A DNA stretch of 64,000 nucleotides from Tridacna crocea (Eukaryota > Mollusca > Bivalvia > Cardiida > Cardiidae). Where the stretch lies: the NCBI GenBank assembly GCA_943736015.1, contig OX031060.1, forward strand, positions 10,119,501-10,183,500, read 5' to 3'. Positions within the stretch are counted from its first letter, which is position 1, and the number at the start of each line of letters is the position of its first letter. Positions 532-62,282 of the stretch are shown piece by piece. The notes beneath the pieces are model-generated. The model was not told where the DNA came from, made no database searches, and saw only the letters and a program-made list of their open reading frames with translations. Position numbers and translations under genes: made by a program.

Positions 532-731
532 GTCCGTATTCACCAACCATTCTTGAGAATATTCTTAGTCTTACTCTCAAAGGTTTTCTAAATTTGTAAG
601 TAACACAACATCTGATTGGCAAAACTGAATGGTTTAGCCAATCAAAGGTTGTGTTACTTACAAGTGTAGAAAATTCTGGCGAATACTGGAGTTAGAACGT
701 TCTTAAGAATGGTTGGTGAAAATACGGGCCC
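532..731. repeat. 200-bp palindromic MITE (GGGTCCGTATTCACCAACCA ends)
   Basis: The left end GGGTCCGTATTCACCAACCA pairs with GGTTGGTGAAAATACGGGCC on the right, and inverted homology continues inward (AAGTAACACAACATCTGATT against TTGTGTTACTT). No coding capacity. Confidence 0.7.
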
Positions 732-3472: not shown

Positions 3473-3959
3473 ACACGGTGGGTACACGTACACCGGATAT
3501 AGTAGAGTAATTGAGTAAATGTTTACAAATGGAAGAAATATTGCTCGCACCACAGGTAAGAATTCATATATTATACCAGTGTTTGTAACATTCGTGTGTC
3601 ATATAGTAATGATTTGATAAGCTAAATGGTTAATCAGTCCTGTACTATTGATGAATTACCAAAACTAGTTTTGTTACAACGTAAATTTGTCGTCCGAAAG
3701 TCATGCTCACGCATATTTTTGACCTGACAGGCCAAAATGATAGAATATTATCAGAACAGGGAATTTGATTGAAATTCTGAAGCGTGCCATTTTTGTGTAA
3801 TACATTAAGTATAATGTACATCAAAAATTTAGTTCCAAGAATTACTTATCATGTAGTTATACGTCACAGAAGATTACCATCGGTGTACCGAGGATAGTTC
3901 CTTGCTGTACCGAGGATAGCTGTATTTTAGAAATTTGTGTACTGAGGATAGTAGTATAA

Positions 3960-9017: not shown

Positions 9018-9748
9018 GAACTCTTTACCAAAGAACAAAATTTGAGACTGGTCCAAATTGAGAGCATTTGCAGTTGACAAAATAAATGTGAGTAAAAATT
9101 TTGAAATTTGTTCATGGAAGGGAAGAAAAAATTGTGGTAAAAAGGAGAAAATGCTCAATACCAGCATTTTCTCCTTTTTCTATATGTTTTCAAGAGGCTT
9201 CTTTCTCAGGGTCCTCAAAAGTAGGGATTAAACATGGGTAATTGGTTAACTCTTTACCACACAATCCCGAGCTTTGACGCCTTTAACCCATTACCACACA
9301 ATCCCTACTTTTGACGCCCCTGAGAAAGAAGCCTTTAGAAAACACTGTAGGAAAAGGAGAAAATGCTGGTAGCCAGCATTTTCTCCTTTTCCCACAGTGT
9401 TTTCTACCCTTCCCAGAACAAATTTCAACTTTTCAGTTACCTTTATTTTGTCATCTGCAAATGCCTTCAATTTGAACCAGTCTAAAATTTTGTCGTTTGG
9501 TAATGGGTTAAAGAAAAAAAAAATCTTTTGAAAACATTGTGAGAAAAGGAGAAATTGCTTGTTTACAGGAAGGGCAGAAAATATTGTGGGAAAAGGAGAA
9601 AATGCTGGCTACCAGCATTTTCTCCTTTTCCCACAACATTTACTACCTTTCCCAAAACAAATGTCATTTTTGGGGCAATATTTATTGTCGTCTGCAAATG
9701 CTTTGACTTTGGACCAGCCTAAATTTCTGTTCTTTGGTAAAGAGTTAA
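9018..9748. repeat. Cluster of A elements: 9018-9249, fragment 9246-9286, 9283-9511, 9525-9748
   Basis: A plus-strand copy, a 41-bp terminal stub, a complete minus-strand copy and a compound copy follow one another. Two TTAA sites are shared. The compound copy carries two cores; one reads GAAATTGCTTGTTTACAGG, a half of the CTTG-type variant. Confidence 0.8.
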
Positions 9749-9785: not shown

Positions 9786-9841
9786 CTAGATCAAGATCAG
9801 ACTGCACAAAATGTGCAGTCTGATCTTTGATCTAGACTGTC
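9786..9841. repeat. Family F hairpin
   Basis: TAGATCAAGATCAGACTGCA, then CAAAATGTG, then the complementary arm ending GATCTAGAC. Confidence 0.8.
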
Positions 9842-9961: not shown

Positions 9962-10192
9962 TTAACCCTTTACCCCCATATGGTATTTCTATGGTATCTC
10001 TAACTGATCCTAAATAACAGCAAGGATGAAGCCGTTTTTTTATGTGTATAGGACACCTTTTGATAGCATAAAAAACATTGTGACAAAAGGTGAAATTGCT
10101 CGTCACAAGCAATTTCACCTTTTGCAACAATGTTTTCCAAAGGCTCCTACAAGCAATGCGTAGAAACGAGTATCTATGGAGTAGAGGGTTAA
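9962..10192 (+). repeat. Family B element (sister of A)
   Basis: TTAA-flanked with CCCTTTACCCCCATATGG at the left and ATCTATGGAGTAGAGGG at the right. The hairpin differs from A (AAGGTGAAATTGCTCG) but keeps pairing. It is the inverse of 30127-30358, with which it shares ATGGTATCTCTAACTGATCC. Confidence 0.8.
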
Positions 10193-17306: not shown

Positions 17307-17372
17307 ATAGTGTAGATCATGATCAGACTGCACAGAATGTGCAGTCTGATCATGGATCTACACTGTCCGATA
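17307..17372. repeat. Family F hairpin
   Basis: GTAGATCATGATCAGACTGC arm, CACAGAATGTG loop, complementary arm ending GGATCTACACTGTCC. Confidence 0.8.
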
Positions 17373-29965: not shown

Positions 29966-30563
29966 TCGTTATCTGCGCATGTCATATTCTTCGTCATGTC
30001 ACATTCTTCGTCATGTCATACTCTTCGAAGATTCGTCCTGTCTGCTACGACGCATCACCCATCCACTACATACCTGGGAAAAGCAAGGCTTTTATCGAAA
30101 CTATTAGCCTATTACCCGAACATGTTTTAACCCTTTACTCCATAGATACTTATTTCTACACATTGCTTGTAGGAGCCTATGGAAAACATTGTGGCAAAAG
30201 GTGAAATTGCTCGTGACGAGCAATTTCACCTTTTGTCACAATGTTTTCTATGCTATCAAAAGGTGTCATATACATATAATAAGAAACAGCTTCATCCTTG
30301 CTGTTATTTAGCATCAATTAGAGATACCATAGAAATGCCTCATGGAGTAAAGAGTTAATAAATGATCGGTGCATAGATTACATTCAAGCCGATTAAAGCT
30401 GAATAAATGGCACCAGGTTGAGTTTTGTCGAGTAAAAGTTTATTTCATTTGAAATTCAAAGTAACGGTTGCTTTATAAAAAATTACTCCGCTTCAGTAGC
30501 TAGAATGCCCAAATTAGATAGATGCATGTTTGTAGAAATGCCATCTAGCGGGAGATAACGAAG
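29966..30563 (+). repeat. Family C element carrying a nested B element
   Basis: TTATCTGCGCATGTCATATT start (with the CATGTCATATTCTTCG word tripled) and GCCATCTAGCGGGAGATAAC end. The B element sits inside at 30127-30358. Confidence 0.8.
30127..30358 (-). repeat. Family B element with TTAA target duplication
   Basis: CCCTTTACTCCATAGATACT at the left, GCCTCATGGAGTAAAGAG at the right, hairpin GGTGAAATTGCTCGTGACGA. Flanked by TTAA on both sides; the homologous empty site in another C copy is at 49226-49229. Confidence 0.85.
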
Positions 30564-31686: not shown

Positions 31687-31775
31687 AACAAATCGTCGGC
31701 TTACTTCAAAAACCTCGTAACTACAGCTTGTTTCAAGCTGTAGTTACGAGGTTCTTGAAGTAAAACGACGATATG
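31687..31775. repeat. Family E hairpin
   Basis: TCGTCGGCTTACTTCAAAAA outer arm, ACCTCGTAACTACAGCTTG, loop TTT, complementary arm ending AAAACGACGA. Confidence 0.85.
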
Positions 31776-31981: not shown

Positions 31982-32228
31982 TTTAACCCCTTTGCCGACG
32001 ATCCTAGTTTTCACAACAATGAGTGAACCTGCTTCCAAAAAAATCACAGGAAAGAGAAGATATCGTCGGTTAACTTCAAAAACCTCGTAACTACAGCTTG
32101 AAACAAGCTGTAGTTACGAGGTTTTTGAAGTAAACCGACGATATCGTTTCCAGCATCTTTTCCTTTTTTAACATTTTTTTTTTAATTTCAGTGCGGTTAA
32201 AGCAAGTCTTTGTTTGGTAAGGAGCTAA
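31982..32228 (-). repeat. Decayed A-like element with an E hairpin in its middle
   Basis: TTTTAACCCCTTTGCCGACG at left, TTTGTTTGGTAAGGAGCTAA at right. The E hairpin occupies 32064-32147, between GGAAAGAGAAGAT and TTTCCAGCATCTTTTCC, just where the A loop should be. Confidence 0.65.
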
Positions 32229-32446: not shown

Positions 32447-32675
32447 TTAACCCATTACCACACAATCCCTACTTTTGACGCCCCTGAGAAAGAATCTTTC
32501 TGAAAACATTGTGGGAAAAGGAGAAAATGCTGGTAACCAGCATTTTCTCCTTTTCCCACAATGTTTTCTACCCTTCTCTATACAAATTTCAAATTTTCAG
32601 CCACTTTTATTTTGTCGTCTGCAAATGCTTTCAATTTGGACCAGTCTAAAATATTGTCGTCTGGTAATGGGTTAA
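32447..32675 (-). repeat. Family A element, well preserved
   Basis: TTAA both sides, CCCATTACCACACAATCCCT left end, GTCTGGTAATGGG right end, hairpin arms of ~33 bp without mismatch. A 66-codon frame (MTPLRKNLSENIVGKGENAG...) runs through it as in many copies. Confidence 0.9.
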
Positions 32676-32990: not shown

Positions 32991-33887
32991 TTACTGTACA
33001 CTGTGGCGATCAGTCAAAAACACTGTATGGAAACTCTGTACGGGAAATTTCTTCGGTGAATTCAAGATGGCGGACACGTGTTATTGACAAAGTAAGTGTC
33101 GTTTAATTTTGGGCCCGAAACTTGTTTCAAATTGCATCCCCTACAACAAGTAAGGTACCAATCTATAGAGCTTTGATTGAATAATCAAGCGATAGTAGCT
33201 TATGAGAAAATGGGAGTGCCTCTTGTCCGTAATCCCGCGCTGAACATGATGTTTTGATGAAGTTGAAAAACTAAGCGGGAGACCGGAAGAAAACTGGCTT
33301 TATTTCATCGAATAGATAGCTAATGATAAAAGAATGTGCCTCGATCGAAGGGAAAATGTCATATTCTTACAACTGTACCAAAATACGTTGCTTATATTTA
33401 CTGATTTAGCTGTTATAAAGTTTTGAAATTTTGCATGGTGTACTCTTCGGTGCAAACCGAAACTAAACTACTATACGGTTGGGTGATCGGAATTTCTGTA
33501 CGCTTCGGTAACAAATATGAAGTCAAAAATCTGTACGCTTCGGTGAAACGATTCAGGGAGGAAAAAAGGAAATGTACGAACAATCTACATGGGTCATTTA
33601 CTTGATGTTTTTATGTTGAACTCAAAGAAACGTGATGTATAAATCCGCGACTTCGTACTCTAAGATGGCTCGTTATTGAGAAGTGGTGAGCAACATGAAC
33701 AGAAGCATCCTGTATACATGTATATATATATGGGCATTTCACATAAAAATAGTAAACTTAAGGTTTTTGTCTTGGTCTAACACCAAAAATGTAGAAGCCA
33801 TCCATAGTATAAACTTCAAAGACGAATTATATTAAATGTGAAAAGCAAAATATAGAACCGTACCTCCTCTCTCATCATTTATTGATC

Positions 33888-35140: not shown

Positions 35141-35669
35141 TTTTCACCGAAGCGTACAGATTTTTGACTTCATATTTGTTACCAAAGCGTACAGAAATTC
35201 CGATCACCCAACCGTACAGTAGTTTAGTTTCGGTTTGCACCGAAGAGTACACCATGCAAAATTTCAAAACTTTATAACAACTAAATCAGTAAATATAAGC
35301 AACGTATTTTGGTACAGTTGTAAGAATGTGACATTTTCCCTTCGATCGAGGCACAATCTTTTATCATTAGCTGTCTATTCGATGAAATAAAGCCAGTTTT
35401 CTTCCGGTCTCCCGCTTAGTTTTTCAACTTCATCAAAACATCATGTTCAGCGCTGGATTACGGACAAGAGGCACTCCCATTTTCTCATAAGCTACTATCG
35501 CTTGATTATTCAATCGAAGCTCTTTAGATTGGTACCTTACTTGTTGTAGGGGATGCAATTTAAAACAAGTTTCGGGCCCAAAATTAAACGACACTTACTT
35601 TGTCAATAACACGTGTCCGCCATCTTGAATTCACCGAAGAAATTCCCCGTACAGAGTTTCCATACAGTG

Positions 35670-41237: not shown

Positions 41238-41467
41238 TTAACTCTCTACCAAACAACAAAAAATTAGACTAATCCAAATTGAAAGCACTAACAGTCGACA
41301 AAATAAATTTAACCGTCAAAAATTGATATTTGTTTCTAGCAGAGAAGAAAGCATTGTGGGAAAAGGAGAAAATGCTGGGTACCAGCATTTTCTCCTTTTC
41401 ACACAATGTTTCAAAAGGCTTCTATCTCCGGGTCGTTAAAACCAGGGCTTGTTTGGTAAAGGGTTAA
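41238..41467 (+). repeat. Family A element
   Basis: TTAA both sides; GCTGGGTACCAGC core, a symmetric variant of the loop. Confidence 0.85.
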
Positions 41468-43246: not shown

Positions 43247-43313
43247 GAACAATGTAGATCAAGATCAGACTGCACAGAACATGCAGTCTGATCTTGGATC
43301 TACACTGTTCGAT
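43247..43313. repeat. Family F hairpin, best preserved
   Basis: GTAGATCAAGATCAGACTGC, ACAGAACAT, then GCAGTCTGATCTTGGATCTA; 22-bp arms with one insertion. Confidence 0.85.
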
Positions 43314-46269: not shown

Positions 46270-47330
46270 AGGTGCTCCCCTTTGCCAAAGCATGACCTTT
46301 AATATACTGTAGATAGTTGGGTTTAAAGGAGAAAGTGTTTGTGACCATCATTTTTTTTCCTTTTGCTCCAATGTTTTTGAAAATGGTTTGTTGCAAGATG
46401 CACAATATGCGTCTGAAACGGATGATAAATTGGACTCTTTACCAAATGACATATGTCTCTTTGTCATTTCGTCAATCTCACATCTCGGACCAGGAATTCC
46501 TTTGATGTCTGTCTTGAAATTATTTGTTGATGCTTTTGTAAGTTTCCAGAAAAGGGAGGTAATTAGATATTATATCCTCTTGTAATGAGAATATAGTGGT
46601 TTTAGATTTACAGATGATAATTCTAAGAAAGGCAAAAATAATCAAAGTACTGATAGTACTGAAGGCCAGGAAATTGAGGATACGAAACAACACATGAAGT
46701 CAATTTACAAACAGGTAGACGGACAGGGATACAAGCGGATTCCACTAAGCCCCTGGAATTCTTGGTTTTATCAGGAAATTTTGAACTGATACTAGAAAGC
46801 CAGAGCTAGGCATGTGCTCACAGTTATGGGGTGCTTGATAATGGCTTAGAATACTTAGTAATTTGTCGTGCTTGTAAACAATCCCAAGTCAAAATTGAAC
46901 CGTATTCAATCGGCGCAATACCAACTTTTGTTATCTAAATTTTTTGAGACATGTGATGTGTTGTAGACCTGAATGACTTTATTTTTTACATTTATGACGC
47001 AAAAACATATTTATTTTCATTGATTTCAATGAAATACATGTAAGATAGATATCAAGGTAAAATGTAATGAATAATAAAGATTGGAGTGATATGGCAGTTG
47101 GTCATGTTGTCTCTACCTTCCACAAGTCGATGAAATTTTGAACTGTTCATATTTGAAGGAAGTTGTAGATGAAAATCCAAAGTAGTTCTTCGTGTATATT
47201 GAAAAGTAAGATTTTGGGGAAATTGGGAGGAATTGCTTGTTACAAGCAAATTCTCTTTTAGCCAAAATATTTTCTCAATAAAATACTGTGAAAAGGTTGG
47301 ATTGTTTTAGGAAAACGATTAGGCTCGGTT
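46270..47330. other. Mostly unassigned, with decayed A and CTTG-core elements
   Basis: 46310-46400 keeps an A-like arm pair with a broken core. 47155-47320 contains GGGAGGAATTGCTTGTTACA and CAAGCAAATTCTC, a third symmetric hairpin type. Confidence 0.5.
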
Positions 47331-51069: not shown

Positions 51070-51208
51070 CGTCGGTTTACTTCAAAAACCTCGTAACTAT
51101 AGCTTGTAACAAGCTGTAGTTACGAGGTTTTTGAAGTAAACTAACGAAAACCTCGTAACTATAGCTTGTAAAAAGCTGTAGTTACGAGGTTTTTTTTTAA
51201 GTAAACCG
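51070..51208. repeat. Double family E hairpin
   Basis: Two hairpins share an outer TCGTCGGTTTACTTC / AAGTAAACCGACGA frame: one complete, then a second ACCTCGTAACTATAGCTTG unit. It lies in intron 2 of the claudin-like gene. Confidence 0.85.
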
Positions 51209-59016: not shown

Positions 59017-59095
59017 CGTCGGTTTACCTAAAAAAAACCTCGTAACTACAGCTTGTTTCAAGCTGTAGTTACGAGGTTTTTGAAGTACACCGAAG
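59017..59095. repeat. Family E hairpin
   Basis: ATCGTCGGTTTACCTAAAAA arm, CTACAGCTTGTTTCAAGCTG centre, end AAGTACACCGAAG. Confidence 0.85.
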
Positions 59096-60373: not shown

Positions 60374-61933
60374 CTAGTCTATGGAATATACAACATAACA
60401 GTAACAGGTGCGTAATGCAGGGTCAAGTGTGACTTTTTTCAGAGAAAATAAAAAAAGAATGCATTTTATATTTGTAGGGAAAATAATGTTGAATAAGAAA
60501 AAATGCTGGTTACCAGCATTCTGTAGTTTTCCAACAACGATTTCGAGAGTAGGGATATACACTGTACAGGCAGTAAGATTCGTCTTCGATCCAAAAATCT
60601 CTGTGATTAATCTTACTGTATGTGCTGAGCAATAGAAATCTATCAGGGTCCGTCCAAAAAAGTCGAGTAGATACATTTTGCGCTGAAAGAGTTCCAGCTT
60701 CCTTTTTCCATCTACTGTATCAAGTAAAACAGATAAAATCTTTATATCCACTGTCATATCCTTCTGTTCACCAGGCGGTAAGCACACCCTCCAGTAGTCA
60801 TGATACAAAACGTTGGCAATTTTCCAGAATATCTGGTGACTTGGTATATCAGTATTACCATCCTCTTTGGTTGGCATGAATTCTATCACAGTTGTTCCCT
60901 GTGGCGCGAAATTCATATTATACAAACCGCCGCCATGAGGACCTAGAATAATCCGAGAGTTTCCGAATATTTCTAAGCTTGCATCAAGCGTATAGGGACC
61001 CTTGAAAACTTTTATGACGTCATTTTCGTAGCGTTTTTCTAACATTGTAATAACTTCCTTCCAGTTCAAAATGTGTCTTCCACATTTGAAGCATCCATCT
61101 CGTGTTACTATAACAACATAAGCGTGTTTGTATCGAACGCTGAGCAAGTTTGGGACACCTAAAAGACGACGGGCTTCTCGCCACAATGTTGGGTGAAGTC
61201 TATCTCTGATACACGAGTGTATCATCAAATCTGCCCCATATTGCTCTTTCCGATGCCAAAATATTAACTGATCCCTTGATATACCTAATCTTTTCAGATA
61301 ATCGTATAGAATTGAGTCACGTGGCCTTTCCATTAACAATTTAACGGTTTTATTTTGTATGAGAGGCAGTATCTGTACAATTTGGTGCAGGGTACCATCA
61401 GTGAAATGCTGAACTGAAAATCCGTCACGACTCAGTAGTGGAACTAAAACCGGGTACCAGTTCTTTATCTTTTCCGTCTTTGCTTGAGTAATCCAATCTT
61501 CAGCTCCTTTATAGCCACAAAATTTATCTGTGCCATAGGTACCATTGCGCAGAAATAGAACTTCCGTGAAATAATCCTTCATCGGCTGAGCTTCCATAAA
61601 TTCCTTGTTTTCGTCGTTTTTGTTCCATAAGGTTAGACTGTGTTCGTCTGGAAATGAGGGGCACCGAAAAGTGAAGTCAGACAAATTATGTCTCACCCAT
61701 AGACGGTCTACGTCTTTTGAAAGTTTGGCAAAGGATATGTTGACAAATTGGAAGTCTTCAAAAGGGGTTTTGTTTGCTGCCATGCCGTACTTTATACTAC
61801 ACCATGATTTTATTCTGGACGTTCTTGTACTCATCCAATAGTACTGTAGCAAACTGAAAATCAGGATGAGAAACATGGAGGCAAACGCTACCTTTTTTAA
61901 AAATTTATAAATCGCCATCATTATAAAAGTCAT
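60374..61933 (-). CDS. GT61-family glycosyltransferase, single exon, with a repeat-derived C-terminus
   Basis: This is an uninterrupted 519-codon frame. Residues 1-11 are short and cytosolic, and about 15-32 form a hydrophobic signal anchor, so the protein looks like a type II Golgi/ER membrane enzyme. The luminal part carries the GT61 (DUF563) signature: a basic Cys-containing stretch before an NWKEV segment, then DASLEIFGNSRIILGPHGGG with GPHGGG at 331-336, followed by NMNFAPQGTTVIEF. That family includes EOGT, POMGNT2 and plant xylosyltransferases and uses nucleotide sugars. The substrate cannot be told from sequence. Family homology seems to end near residue 455. From about residue 460 (IPTLEIVVGKLQ, then NAGNQH at 472-477) the frame reads through a type A element, so the tail is transposon-derived. 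Met1, Met5 and Met6 are alternative starts; Met6 has A at -3 and G at +4. The domain is well supported. Whether the tail is translated in vivo is inferred. Confidence 0.85.
   Translation of the reverse strand: MTFIMMAIYKFLKKVAFASMFLILIFSLLQYYWMSTRTSRIKSWCSIKYGMAANKTPFEDFQFVNISFAKLSKDVDRLWVRHNLSDFTFRCPSFPDEHSLTLWNKNDENKEFMEAQPMKDYFTEVLFLRNGTYGTDKFCGYKGAEDWITQAKTEKIKNWYPVLVPLLSRDGFSVQHFTDGTLHQIVQILPLIQNKTVKLLMERPRDSILYDYLKRLGISRDQLIFWHRKEQYGADLMIHSCIRDRLHPTLWREARRLLGVPNLLSVRYKHAYVVIVTRDGCFKCGRHILNWKEVITMLEKRYENDVIKVFKGPYTLDASLEIFGNSRIILGPHGGGLYNMNFAPQGTTVIEFMPTKEDGNTDIPSHQIFWKIANVLYHDYWRVCLPPGEQKDMTVDIKILSVLLDTVDGKRKLELFQRKMYLLDFFGRTLIDFYCSAHTVRLITEIFGSKTNLTACTVYIPTLEIVVGKLQNAGNQHFFLFNIIFPTNIKCILFLFSLKKVTLDPALRTCYCYVVYSID
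60447..60558 (-). repeat. A-type element forming the GT61 C-terminal codons
   Basis: Keeps AAATGCTGGTTACCAGCATT, TTTTCCAACAACG and AGTAGGGAT in the normal A order with internal deletions; no TTAA ends. It is the only A copy overlapping a conserved gene here. Confidence 0.75.
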
Positions 61934-62054: not shown

Positions 62055-62282
62055 TTAACCCTTTCCACAATAAGCCCTTGTTTTTACTTGTCTGCAGTAC
62101 AAGTCTTTTGAAAACATTGTGGGAAAAGGAGAAATTGCTCGTTACGAGCAATTTCTCCTTTTCCCACAGTGTTTTTTACCCATTTGGAGAACTTTCTGTC
62201 ATTTTTATCAAATTTGAAATTGTCGTCTGCAAACTCTTTGAGTTTGGAAGAGTCCAAAATTTGTCGTTTGGGAAAGGGTTAA
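62055..62282 (-). repeat. A/B hybrid element upstream of GT61
   Basis: TTAA both sides, ends CCCTTTCC / GGGAAAGGG. Outer hairpin arms are A-type (GGGAAAAGGAGAAA) while the centre is B-type (TTGCTCGTTACGAGCAA), all perfectly paired. Confidence 0.85.

What the first reader, a model, noticed from the sequence alone, without database searches (positions are those of the whole stretch)
62055..62282. Symmetric changes in the hairpin: A, B, hybrid and CTTG cores
Loop types GCTGG/CCAGC (A), GCTCG/CGAGC (B, 30.2 kb), GCTTG/CAAGC (47.23 kb) and GCTGGGTACCAGC (41.37 kb) differ at both arms together, so pairing is kept while sequence changes. The 62-kb copy is intermediate: A-type outer arms with a B-type centre. 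That implies either selection for the folded form or arm-to-arm correction (hairpin templating or gene conversion), and suggests stepwise evolution from loop outward.
Basis: partly seen in the sequence, partly recalled or inferred. Interest (0 to 1): 0.8.

Follow-up and report, generated by a model that had tools for sequence, protein, structure and literature searches.

The report
Mobile element keeps its hairpin paired
A very abundant small mobile DNA element carries a 67-base mirror-image hairpin that stays matched when new families arise, even though individual dead copies decay one arm at a time, which makes it a natural test bed for how DNA hairpins evolve.

Summary
The feature is real. 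62055-62282 is one complete TTAA-bounded element, a piggyBac-type MITE, in an unnamed 1.05-Gb genome. Its centre is a 67-bp palindrome (33-bp arms). Copies and fragments occur about once per kb and cover about 16% of a 200-kb sample. The 62-kb copy belongs to its own family (H), whose consensus is a perfect palindrome differing from type A at pairs 8, 26 and 31; type B differs at 14, 21, 26 and 31; all are two-sided. Two further perfect types were read (L079, L080). Within families decay is one-sided: 40 H copies have 58 single-arm and 0 paired changes. With family-defining pairs removed, the paired excess shrinks to 66 against 52. Genome-wide, sampled double changes at pair 31 fit independent decay, except C-G. 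So covariation mostly separates hairpin types; it is not correction in resident copies. Two more signs: the centre base is flipped to its complement in 4 of 40 H and 4 of 40 B copies, apparently independently, and private mutations are about 2.6-fold depleted in the inner stem. Against: half-paired states are inherited (pair 13 in B). 'Loop outward' is not supported. Best reading: selection for a foldable inner hairpin in source copies, with occasional arm-to-arm template switching.

The parts
62055..62282 (+). Complete piggyBac-type MITE of family H, TTAA to TTAA
   Evidence: sequence; 39 further full-length copies at 94-96% among the 40 scored of 2554 candidates; TTAA at both ends in 35 of 40 H copies with no longer flank repeat
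62110..62176 (+). Central 67-bp palindrome, 33-bp arms, centre 62143; one mismatch at pair 8 (left arm T where the family has C)
62143..62143 (+). Centre base T: complement of the H consensus A, one of 4 flipped copies of 40
62055..62071 (+). Left terminal inverted repeat TTAACCCTTTCC...
62266..62282 (-). Right terminal inverted repeat (reverse complement TTAACCCTTTCCC...)
30182..30248 (+). B-type hairpin (pairs 14, 21, 26, 31 changed on both arms; G.T mismatch at pair 13)
10071..10137 (-). Second B-type hairpin in the window, decayed
32447..32675 (+). Representative type-A element with A hairpin (seed of the searches)
9282..9512 (+). Type-A subfamily C8 element: pair 8 is C-G, pair 12 carries the A.C half-state
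41347..41413 (+). Type-A hairpin with loop change only (GGGTACC)
47208..47274 (+). Degenerate copy with GCTTG/CAAGC centre, probably CpG decay of a CTCG type
   Evidence: inference

Best explanation
The hairpin is the conserved core of a very large group of piggyBac-type MITE families. Copies that act as sources for new insertions keep the inner stem (about pairs 14-33) able to fold, by selection on mobilisation, so lineages that found families carry two-sided changes. Ordinary copies decay arm by arm after insertion. The arms do occasionally exchange strands: short template switches or inversions around the loop flip the centre base. Such an event can turn a one-arm mutation into a two-sided one in a single step; slower two-step routes through tolerated mismatches (the G.T at pair 13) also occur. 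Shown: element anatomy, two-sided differences between hairpin types, one-sided decay, inherited half-states, centre flips, depleted private changes in the inner stem. Inferred: that selection acts on transposition, and that template switching makes the paired changes.
For: H consensus is a perfect 67-bp palindrome differing from A at 3 pairs with no one-sided difference; 6 random stem changes would pair so with probability 2e-6. B differs from A at 4 pairs. Two single copies with other flanks are perfect 33-bp palindromes differing from A at pairs 7, 13, 19, 31 (L079) and 1, 9, 14, 19, 31 (L080); only pairs 20-33 had been selected for in finding them. Stem identity between family consensuses is 0.88-0.91, flanks 0.60-0.79 where shuffled sequence gives 0.53-0.57. 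Within H: 58 single-arm, 0 paired; within the 40 fetched B copies outside pair 13: 17 single, 0 paired. Double changes at pair 31 in A centres: of the first 50 listed of 644 (all on contig C1), the 42 A/T-type sites fit independence of the arms (Fisher p 0.73), but C-G occurs 19 times genome-wide where about 0.6 are expected from an A count scaled from 47 sites in 240 kb. Private non-CpG changes in the inner stem of H+B: 18 of 2879 letters, flanks 199 of 11998, p 8e-6. Centre flips: H 4 of 40 (flank A>T 5 of 1480 letters, p 5e-5), B 4 of 40 (flank G>C 6 of 1159, p 2e-4); each flipped copy is nearest to an unflipped one. Terminal repeats also covary (positions 8 and 11: 28 paired against 13 expected, 8 against 1.2, in 114 alignments), as expected if mobilisation selects both ends.
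Against: A flank tree of 161 mostly A copies with parsimony on stem pairs puts 4 paired against 25 single (7 more restoring, 2 double non-matching) on branches with 3 or more descendants, 7 against 60 on branches with two, 37 against 526 on terminal ones: the paired share rises only from 6% to about 10%, so in the A group single-arm changes dominate even on inferred source branches, unless the tree is too saturated to trust, as I think. Half-paired states spread: pair 13 is G.T in 25 of 40 B copies, pair 12 is A.C in 5 of 14 C8 copies, pair 1 is changed on the right arm in 11 of 40 H copies; terminal position 6 is mismatched in the commonest form, 55 of 114. So pairing is not strictly required, at least in the outer stem. 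The inner-stem depletion could partly reflect low mutability of A-tracts: in H only A/T sites are depleted, G/C sites are not. H and B copies were the 40 best-scoring hits, not random ones. The number of independent type-level pair changes is small. No transposition, transcription or folding data were available.
Confidence: 0.5

Rival explanations
1. Birth by fold-back copying: each new family starts when one arm is copied onto the other (snap-back or template-switch synthesis during excision repair or replication), so founders are perfect palindromes without any selection on the hairpin.
For: H consensus, L079 and L080 are perfect palindromes. Centre flips suggest that arms exchange strands. 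Template switching is reported to make compensatory changes and loop inversions (PMC8794818, passages).
Against: Does not by itself explain why the hairpin is more conserved than the flanks between families or depleted in private changes. The majority form of the fetched B copies carries a mismatch at pair 13. The four A/B pair changes all swap the pair (G-C/C-G, A-T/T-A), although such point changes are 62 of 284 in young copies; L079 and L080 follow this less (pairs 1, 9, 14, 31 swap; 7, 13, 19 do not).
Confidence: 0.2
2. Selection alone: compensatory evolution by two successive single mutations through tolerated mismatches, with no strand exchange between arms.
For: Inherited half-states exist (pair 13 in B, pair 12 in C8). 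One of 40 B copies has A-T at pair 13, which would complete G-C > G.T > A-T. One-arm C at pair 31 exists in 679 otherwise exact A centres. The flank tree infers many one-sided changes on internal branches.
Against: Does not explain complement flips of the centre base in 8 of 80 copies. The 679 half-31 sites are only about 0.17% per arm of an estimated 205,000 A centres, so they look like decay and not a lineage; but only two of them were fetched (L091, L092).
Confidence: 0.2
3. Continual arm-to-arm correction (gene conversion) in resident copies.
For: Overall excess of paired changes (157 against 47; 103 against 60 true-register double changes in the reduced set, where slid registers give 55-74 against 46-53); centre flips.
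Against: 0 paired of 59 changed cells in H gives a 95% upper bound of 5%; the age-matched excess is small outside family-defining pairs; sampled A/T double changes at pair 31 are independent.
Confidence: 0.05
4. No constraint: the pairs are founder accidents plus CpG decay at symmetric CpGs.
For: The 47-kb GCTTG/CAAGC variant and one B copy paired at 32 (L016) fit symmetric CpGs.
Against: The A>H and A>B changes are not CpG transitions; 3 of 3 and 4 of 4 matching pairs have chance 2e-6 and 9e-8.
Confidence: 0.05

Closest known systems
Coral CMITEs (piggyBac-type MITEs of Acropora; PMC2872659, abstract and sections 10, 11 and 14 read)
   Same: TTAA duplication, CCCTTT-type ends, several families with different terminal repeats but a strongly conserved internal region (75 bp there, 67 bp here); piggyBac transposases in the genome.
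   Different: The sections read report about 100-bp elements in about 1600 copies and do not describe the internal region as a palindrome; here elements are about 228 bp at about 1 per kb, and the conserved core is a hairpin with two-sided changes between types. Sequence relation not tested (their alignment is a figure).
Repetitive hairpin-forming elements of sponge mitochondrial DNA (PMC2800124, passages read)
   [quoted passage not shown] stems conserved.
   Different: Mitochondrial, 15-18 bp arms; the passages seen mention no terminal repeats or TTAA.
Template-switch mutation in hairpins (PMC8794818, passages read)
   Same: Predicts one-step compensatory changes and loop inversions.
   Different: Studied in RNA genes; here a DNA transposon, where centre flips are seen but one-step paired changes within families are not.
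Made1 / mir-548 MITEs (PMC1784062, passages read)
   Same: MITE that is a near-perfect palindrome.
   Different: There the palindrome is the two terminal repeats themselves; here it is internal and separate from the ends.
piggyBac and piggyBat end palindromes bound by the transposase cysteine-rich domains (PMC11707139, passages read)
   Same: Palindromes inside piggyBac-type ends matter for transposase binding.
   Different: Those are short and near the tips; this one is 67 bp and central.

Membership tests
piggyBac-type MITE | TTAA target-site duplication | tested here: met
   35 of 40 H copies have TTAA at both ends; the adjoining base matches in 9 of these 35, two bases in 1, more in 0; most full A and B copies listed are also TTAA-bounded
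piggyBac-type MITE | terminal inverted repeats starting CC[C/T]T | tested here: met
   H and B begin CCCT at both ends; A is CCCT or CCCA, and its commonest right end reads CTC. The motif is from PMC2872659, whose table also lists a piggyBac with CCCA
piggyBac-type MITE | short and non-autonomous | tested here: met
   consensus 228-229 bp, too short for a transposase
piggyBac-type MITE | autonomous partner with the same ends in the genome | tested here: inconclusive
   118 DDE_Tnp_1_7 matches, the 22 best without stops; the one element read (L132:922-3687) has ends TTAACCCTTTATATAC, sharing about 10 bases, and no hairpin inside; the others were not read
CMITE (coral) | internal region more conserved between families than the rest | tested here: met
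   stem identity 0.88-0.91, flanks including ends 0.60-0.79
CMITE (coral) | same internal sequence as the coral elements | not testable with these tools
   the published alignment is a figure and its letters are not held
Hairpin evolving by template switching | inversion of the loop | tested here: met
   complement flips of the centre base in 8 of 80 copies, separate backgrounds; a one-base loop cannot tell inversion from substitution in any single copy
Hairpin evolving by template switching | paired changes arising in one step within a lineage | tested here: inconclusive
   none in 40 H copies; in 40 fetched B copies one, at pair 13 where the right base was already changed in most; 19 pair-31 C-G sites in varied flanks
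RNA precursor (small-RNA hairpin) | transcription and processing | not testable with these tools
   no expression data; no Rfam match at gathering threshold in the window

The most novel reading that the evidence does not exclude
A 67-bp internal DNA hairpin acts as a selected amplification signal shared by many piggyBac-type MITE families. It physically folds and flips in the germline, so its arms exchange strands by template switching, and this both renews the palindrome in source copies and drives the origin of new families.
Probability: 0.3. Interest if true: 0.7.

Novelty: new variant of a known kind. Interest (0 to 1): 0.5.

Why it matters
Two long-standing questions meet here: why some MITEs reach extreme copy number, and how long perfect palindromes evolve. 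This genome offers an estimated 200,000 exact copies of one 29-base hairpin centre (scaled from 47 in 240 kb), so paired against single changes, loop inversions and source-lineage changes can be counted with rare precision. If the inner hairpin proves to be needed for mobilisation, it would suggest a function for the conserved internal region that was left unexplained in coral CMITEs.

Tried and rejected
Flank tree of 161 copies with parsimony on stem pairs: single-arm changes dominate on all branch classes (3+ descendants: 4 paired, 25 single, 7 restoring, 2 double non-matching). I judge the flanks too saturated, but this result goes against my reading and is listed there. Louvain clustering of flanks of 274 cores: of 11 clusters of 4 or more, H, B and several A clusters came out; one cluster of 8 (which includes tandem copies of L011) showed weak differences, no further clear hairpin type. 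Search for the hairpin in other collections: 0 exact matches in genome contigs and 0 in viral contigs, A centre only, so no relative from another species. Rfam: no match. CpG explanation for pairs 8, 14, 21, 26, 31: rejected, they are not CpG transitions. The swap pattern of the A/B pairs is post hoc and weaker once L079 and L080 are counted; kept only as a remark. Idea that hairpin arms repeat a terminal motif (CACAAT): noticed by eye, not tested. In one search an ungapped reading gave single copies with other pair combinations (for example 8+26); one search aligns that copy otherwise, so I dropped them.

Never obtained: the genome-wide count of the exact A centre and of pair-26 forms; the 205,000 is scaled from 47 sites in 240 kb of evenly spaced stretches. 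Papers searched for paired changes in a piggyBac-type MITE hairpin or near it; I saw none in those listings, which is no proof of absence.

Full report
WHAT IS THERE. The finding's interval is exactly one element, from TTAA at 62055-62058 to TTAA at 62279-62282. Similar elements were collected from the window and 24 evenly spaced 10-kb stretches. In the first 20 of these stretches hits, fragments included, occur at 0.995 per kb and cover 16.5%. A full element is about 228 bp, with short terminal inverted repeats and a central 67-bp palindrome of 33-bp arms and one centre base. In H, 35 of 40 copies have TTAA at both ends and the flanks share no longer repeat, so TTAA is the target-site duplication. 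The genome holds 118 matches to the piggyBac transposase family, the 22 best without stops. One that I read (L132:922-3687) is a 2.8-kb element with ends TTAACCCTTTATATAC and no hairpin inside; it appears to sit within an A-type MITE whose ends are near 829 and 3816, and A-type hairpins lie at 507-572 and 3695-3761, outside it. The elements are therefore piggyBac-type MITEs. The autonomous parent of A, B or H was not identified.

FAMILIES. Type A is the old, large family. C8 is an A subfamily with C-G at pair 8: 14 copies chosen by that pair, most sharing flank markers. H, the 62-kb family, is young: the 40 copies read are about 3% diverged, and the consensus is a perfect palindrome differing from A at pairs 8, 26 and 31. 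B differs from A at pairs 14, 21, 26 and 31 and has largely different flanks. Pair 31 alone is changed in an otherwise A centre at 19 sites, and three of these, L075, L085 and L090, also have pair 8. The 19 lie in varied flanks: five A-like at 83-90%, two H-like at 86-89%, the rest more diverged or partial, so they are not one lineage. Two of them are perfect 33-bp palindromes of new types: L079 differs from A at pairs 7, 13, 19 and 31, L080 at 1, 9, 14, 19 and 31, each with no one-sided difference. The search had required an exact centre (pairs 20-33), so their outer three and four paired changes are unselected. The 62-kb copy is thus not a lone intermediate but a member of a real family.

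PAIRED AGAINST SINGLE CHANGES. In 234 aligned copies, single-arm changes number 1104, paired complementary 157 (47 expected by independence) and both-changed non-complementary 81. Copies differ in age, which alone produces double hits: in the reduced A set, partners slid by 1 to 3 bases give 55-74 double changes against 46-53 expected, and the true register 103 against 60. I therefore shuffled right arms among copies of similar decay. All 215 copies (at least 55 core letters, one copy kept of the L011 tandem array): 146 against 80.5. Without 14 B copies: 92 against 62.1. Without B, C8 and pair-26 copies (181 copies): 66 against 51.7+-6.2, reached by 15 of 1000 shuffles, with 904 single-arm changes. 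Most of the covariation is therefore between families. In H, 58 single-arm and 0 paired changes were seen, 0.65 expected by chance. In the 40 fetched B copies, 42 single-arm and 1 paired, of which 25 single and the 1 paired are at pair 13. In the 13 B copies of the first sample, 25 single and 2 paired, one at pair 13 and one at the CpG pair 32. Genome-wide, in an otherwise exact A centre, one arm carries C at pair 31 in 317+362 sites, both arms carry complementary C-G in 19, and both arms are changed in any way at 644. Of the first 50 of those 644 listed, all on contig C1, 28 are complementary and 22 not. Among the 42 A/T-type sites the two arms are independent (p 0.73); C-G is about 34 times above expectation, using an A count scaled from 47 sites in 240 kb.

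AGAINST MY READING. A flank tree of 161 copies with parsimony puts mostly single-arm changes on internal branches too: 4 paired, 25 single, 7 restoring and 2 double non-matching on branches with three or more descendants. I think the tree is saturated, but it does not show the source-branch pairing that the family consensuses show. Mismatched stems can found lineages: pair 13 is G.T in 25 of 40 and G-C in 14 of 40 B copies; pair 12 is A.C in 5 of 14 C8 copies; pair 1 is changed on the right arm in 11 of 40 H copies. These three lie in the outer stem. In the inner stem (pairs 14-33), changes shared by three or more copies were seen only at CpG letters in H and not at all in B.

TWO UNEXPECTED SIGNS. 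First, the centre base is replaced by its complement far more often than point mutation predicts: A>T in 4 of 40 H copies, against 5 of 1480 flank A letters; G>C in 4 of 40 B copies, against 6 of 1159 flank G letters. Flipped copies are each closer to an unflipped than to any other flipped copy. In 105 young A copies, 6 have T, 2 C and 1 G at the centre, where A>T elsewhere in the core is 21 of 2100. This is what inversion of the loop by strand exchange between arms would leave, although with a one-base loop no single case can be told from a substitution. None of the 40 B copies shows the A.C state that inversion of the whole stem would give at pair 13, so the exchanged segment would have to be short. 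Second, private non-CpG changes are depleted in the inner stem: 18 of 2879 letters, flanks 199 of 11998. Symmetric correction would have left paired changes too, and none was seen in the inner stem of these copies. Low mutability of A-tracts is a possible alternative, since in H the G/C sites are not depleted.

THE ENDS COVARY TOO. Across 114 alignments with both ends (not screened for duplicates, no age control), terminal position 8 (T-A or A-T) is paired-changed in 28 (13 expected) and position 11 in 8 (1.2 expected); position 6 is mismatched in its commonest form, 55 of 114. These arms are some 200 bp apart, so local hairpin copying is not needed there; shared recognition at mobilisation is the usual reason. 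This favours selection on source copies as a common cause.

READING. I hold that source copies are selected for a foldable inner hairpin and matched ends, that dead copies decay freely, and that occasional template switching around the loop supplies two-sided changes. The first part is inferred from type-level pairing, the conservation contrast and the depletion; the second is shown; the third is supported by the flips but not demonstrated for stem pairs.

KNOWN KIND. Coral CMITEs (PMC2872659; abstract and sections 10, 11 and 14 read) are piggyBac-type MITE families with divergent ends and an unexplained conserved internal region. The present elements match that description, and their internal region is a palindrome. 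Sponge mitochondrial hairpin elements also have types that differ by complementary substitutions (PMC2800124, passages). One-step paired change and loop inversion by template switching are published for RNA genes (PMC8794818, passages). I rate this a new variant of a known kind.

Noticed in passing
evenly spaced genome sample, L009-L028: One MITE group at about 1 hit per kb and 16.5% of 200 kb, implying of the order of a million copies and fragments genome-wide.
   Followed up: partly
window 31692-31772, 32059-32145, 51075-51141, 59033-59081: A second hairpin family, unlike this one in sequence (AAAAACCTCGTAACTACAGCTTG... and its complement), also in L030.
   Followed up: no
window 9793-9827, 17318-17354, 43260-43296; L010, L012, L016, L024: A third short hairpin repeat (about GATCAGACTGCA...TGCAGTCTGATC) with variable loop.
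   Followed up: no
window 584-673; L019:8774-8842; L025:7944-8033: A fourth hairpin family (about CTGATTGGCTAAAC...GTTTAGCCAATCAG).
   Followed up: no
window 33021-33548 and 35142-35669: 528-bp inverted repeat, 98% complementary, 1593 bp apart: looks like a recent fold-back element.
   Followed up: no
window 60374-61933, minus strand: 519-codon open frame; its first 416 residues match glycosyltransferase 61 (PF04577, E 4e-14). A decayed MITE hairpin lies in the frame near 60462-60548.
   Followed up: partly
L011 (G000:C1:25000001-25010000): A tandem array of about 1.67-kb units, each carrying the same MITE copy: six hits of identical score in 10 kb.
   Followed up: no
G000, e.g. C18:30428954, C3:66851558, C4:69349889: Uninterrupted piggyBac transposase frames; several with identical score and a 624-residue open frame, suggesting recent activity. 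The one read (L132) lies inside an A-type MITE.
   Followed up: partly
L036, L041, L057, L071: H copies appear to sit in the TTAA at the end of another MITE, making head-to-tail chains.
   Followed up: no
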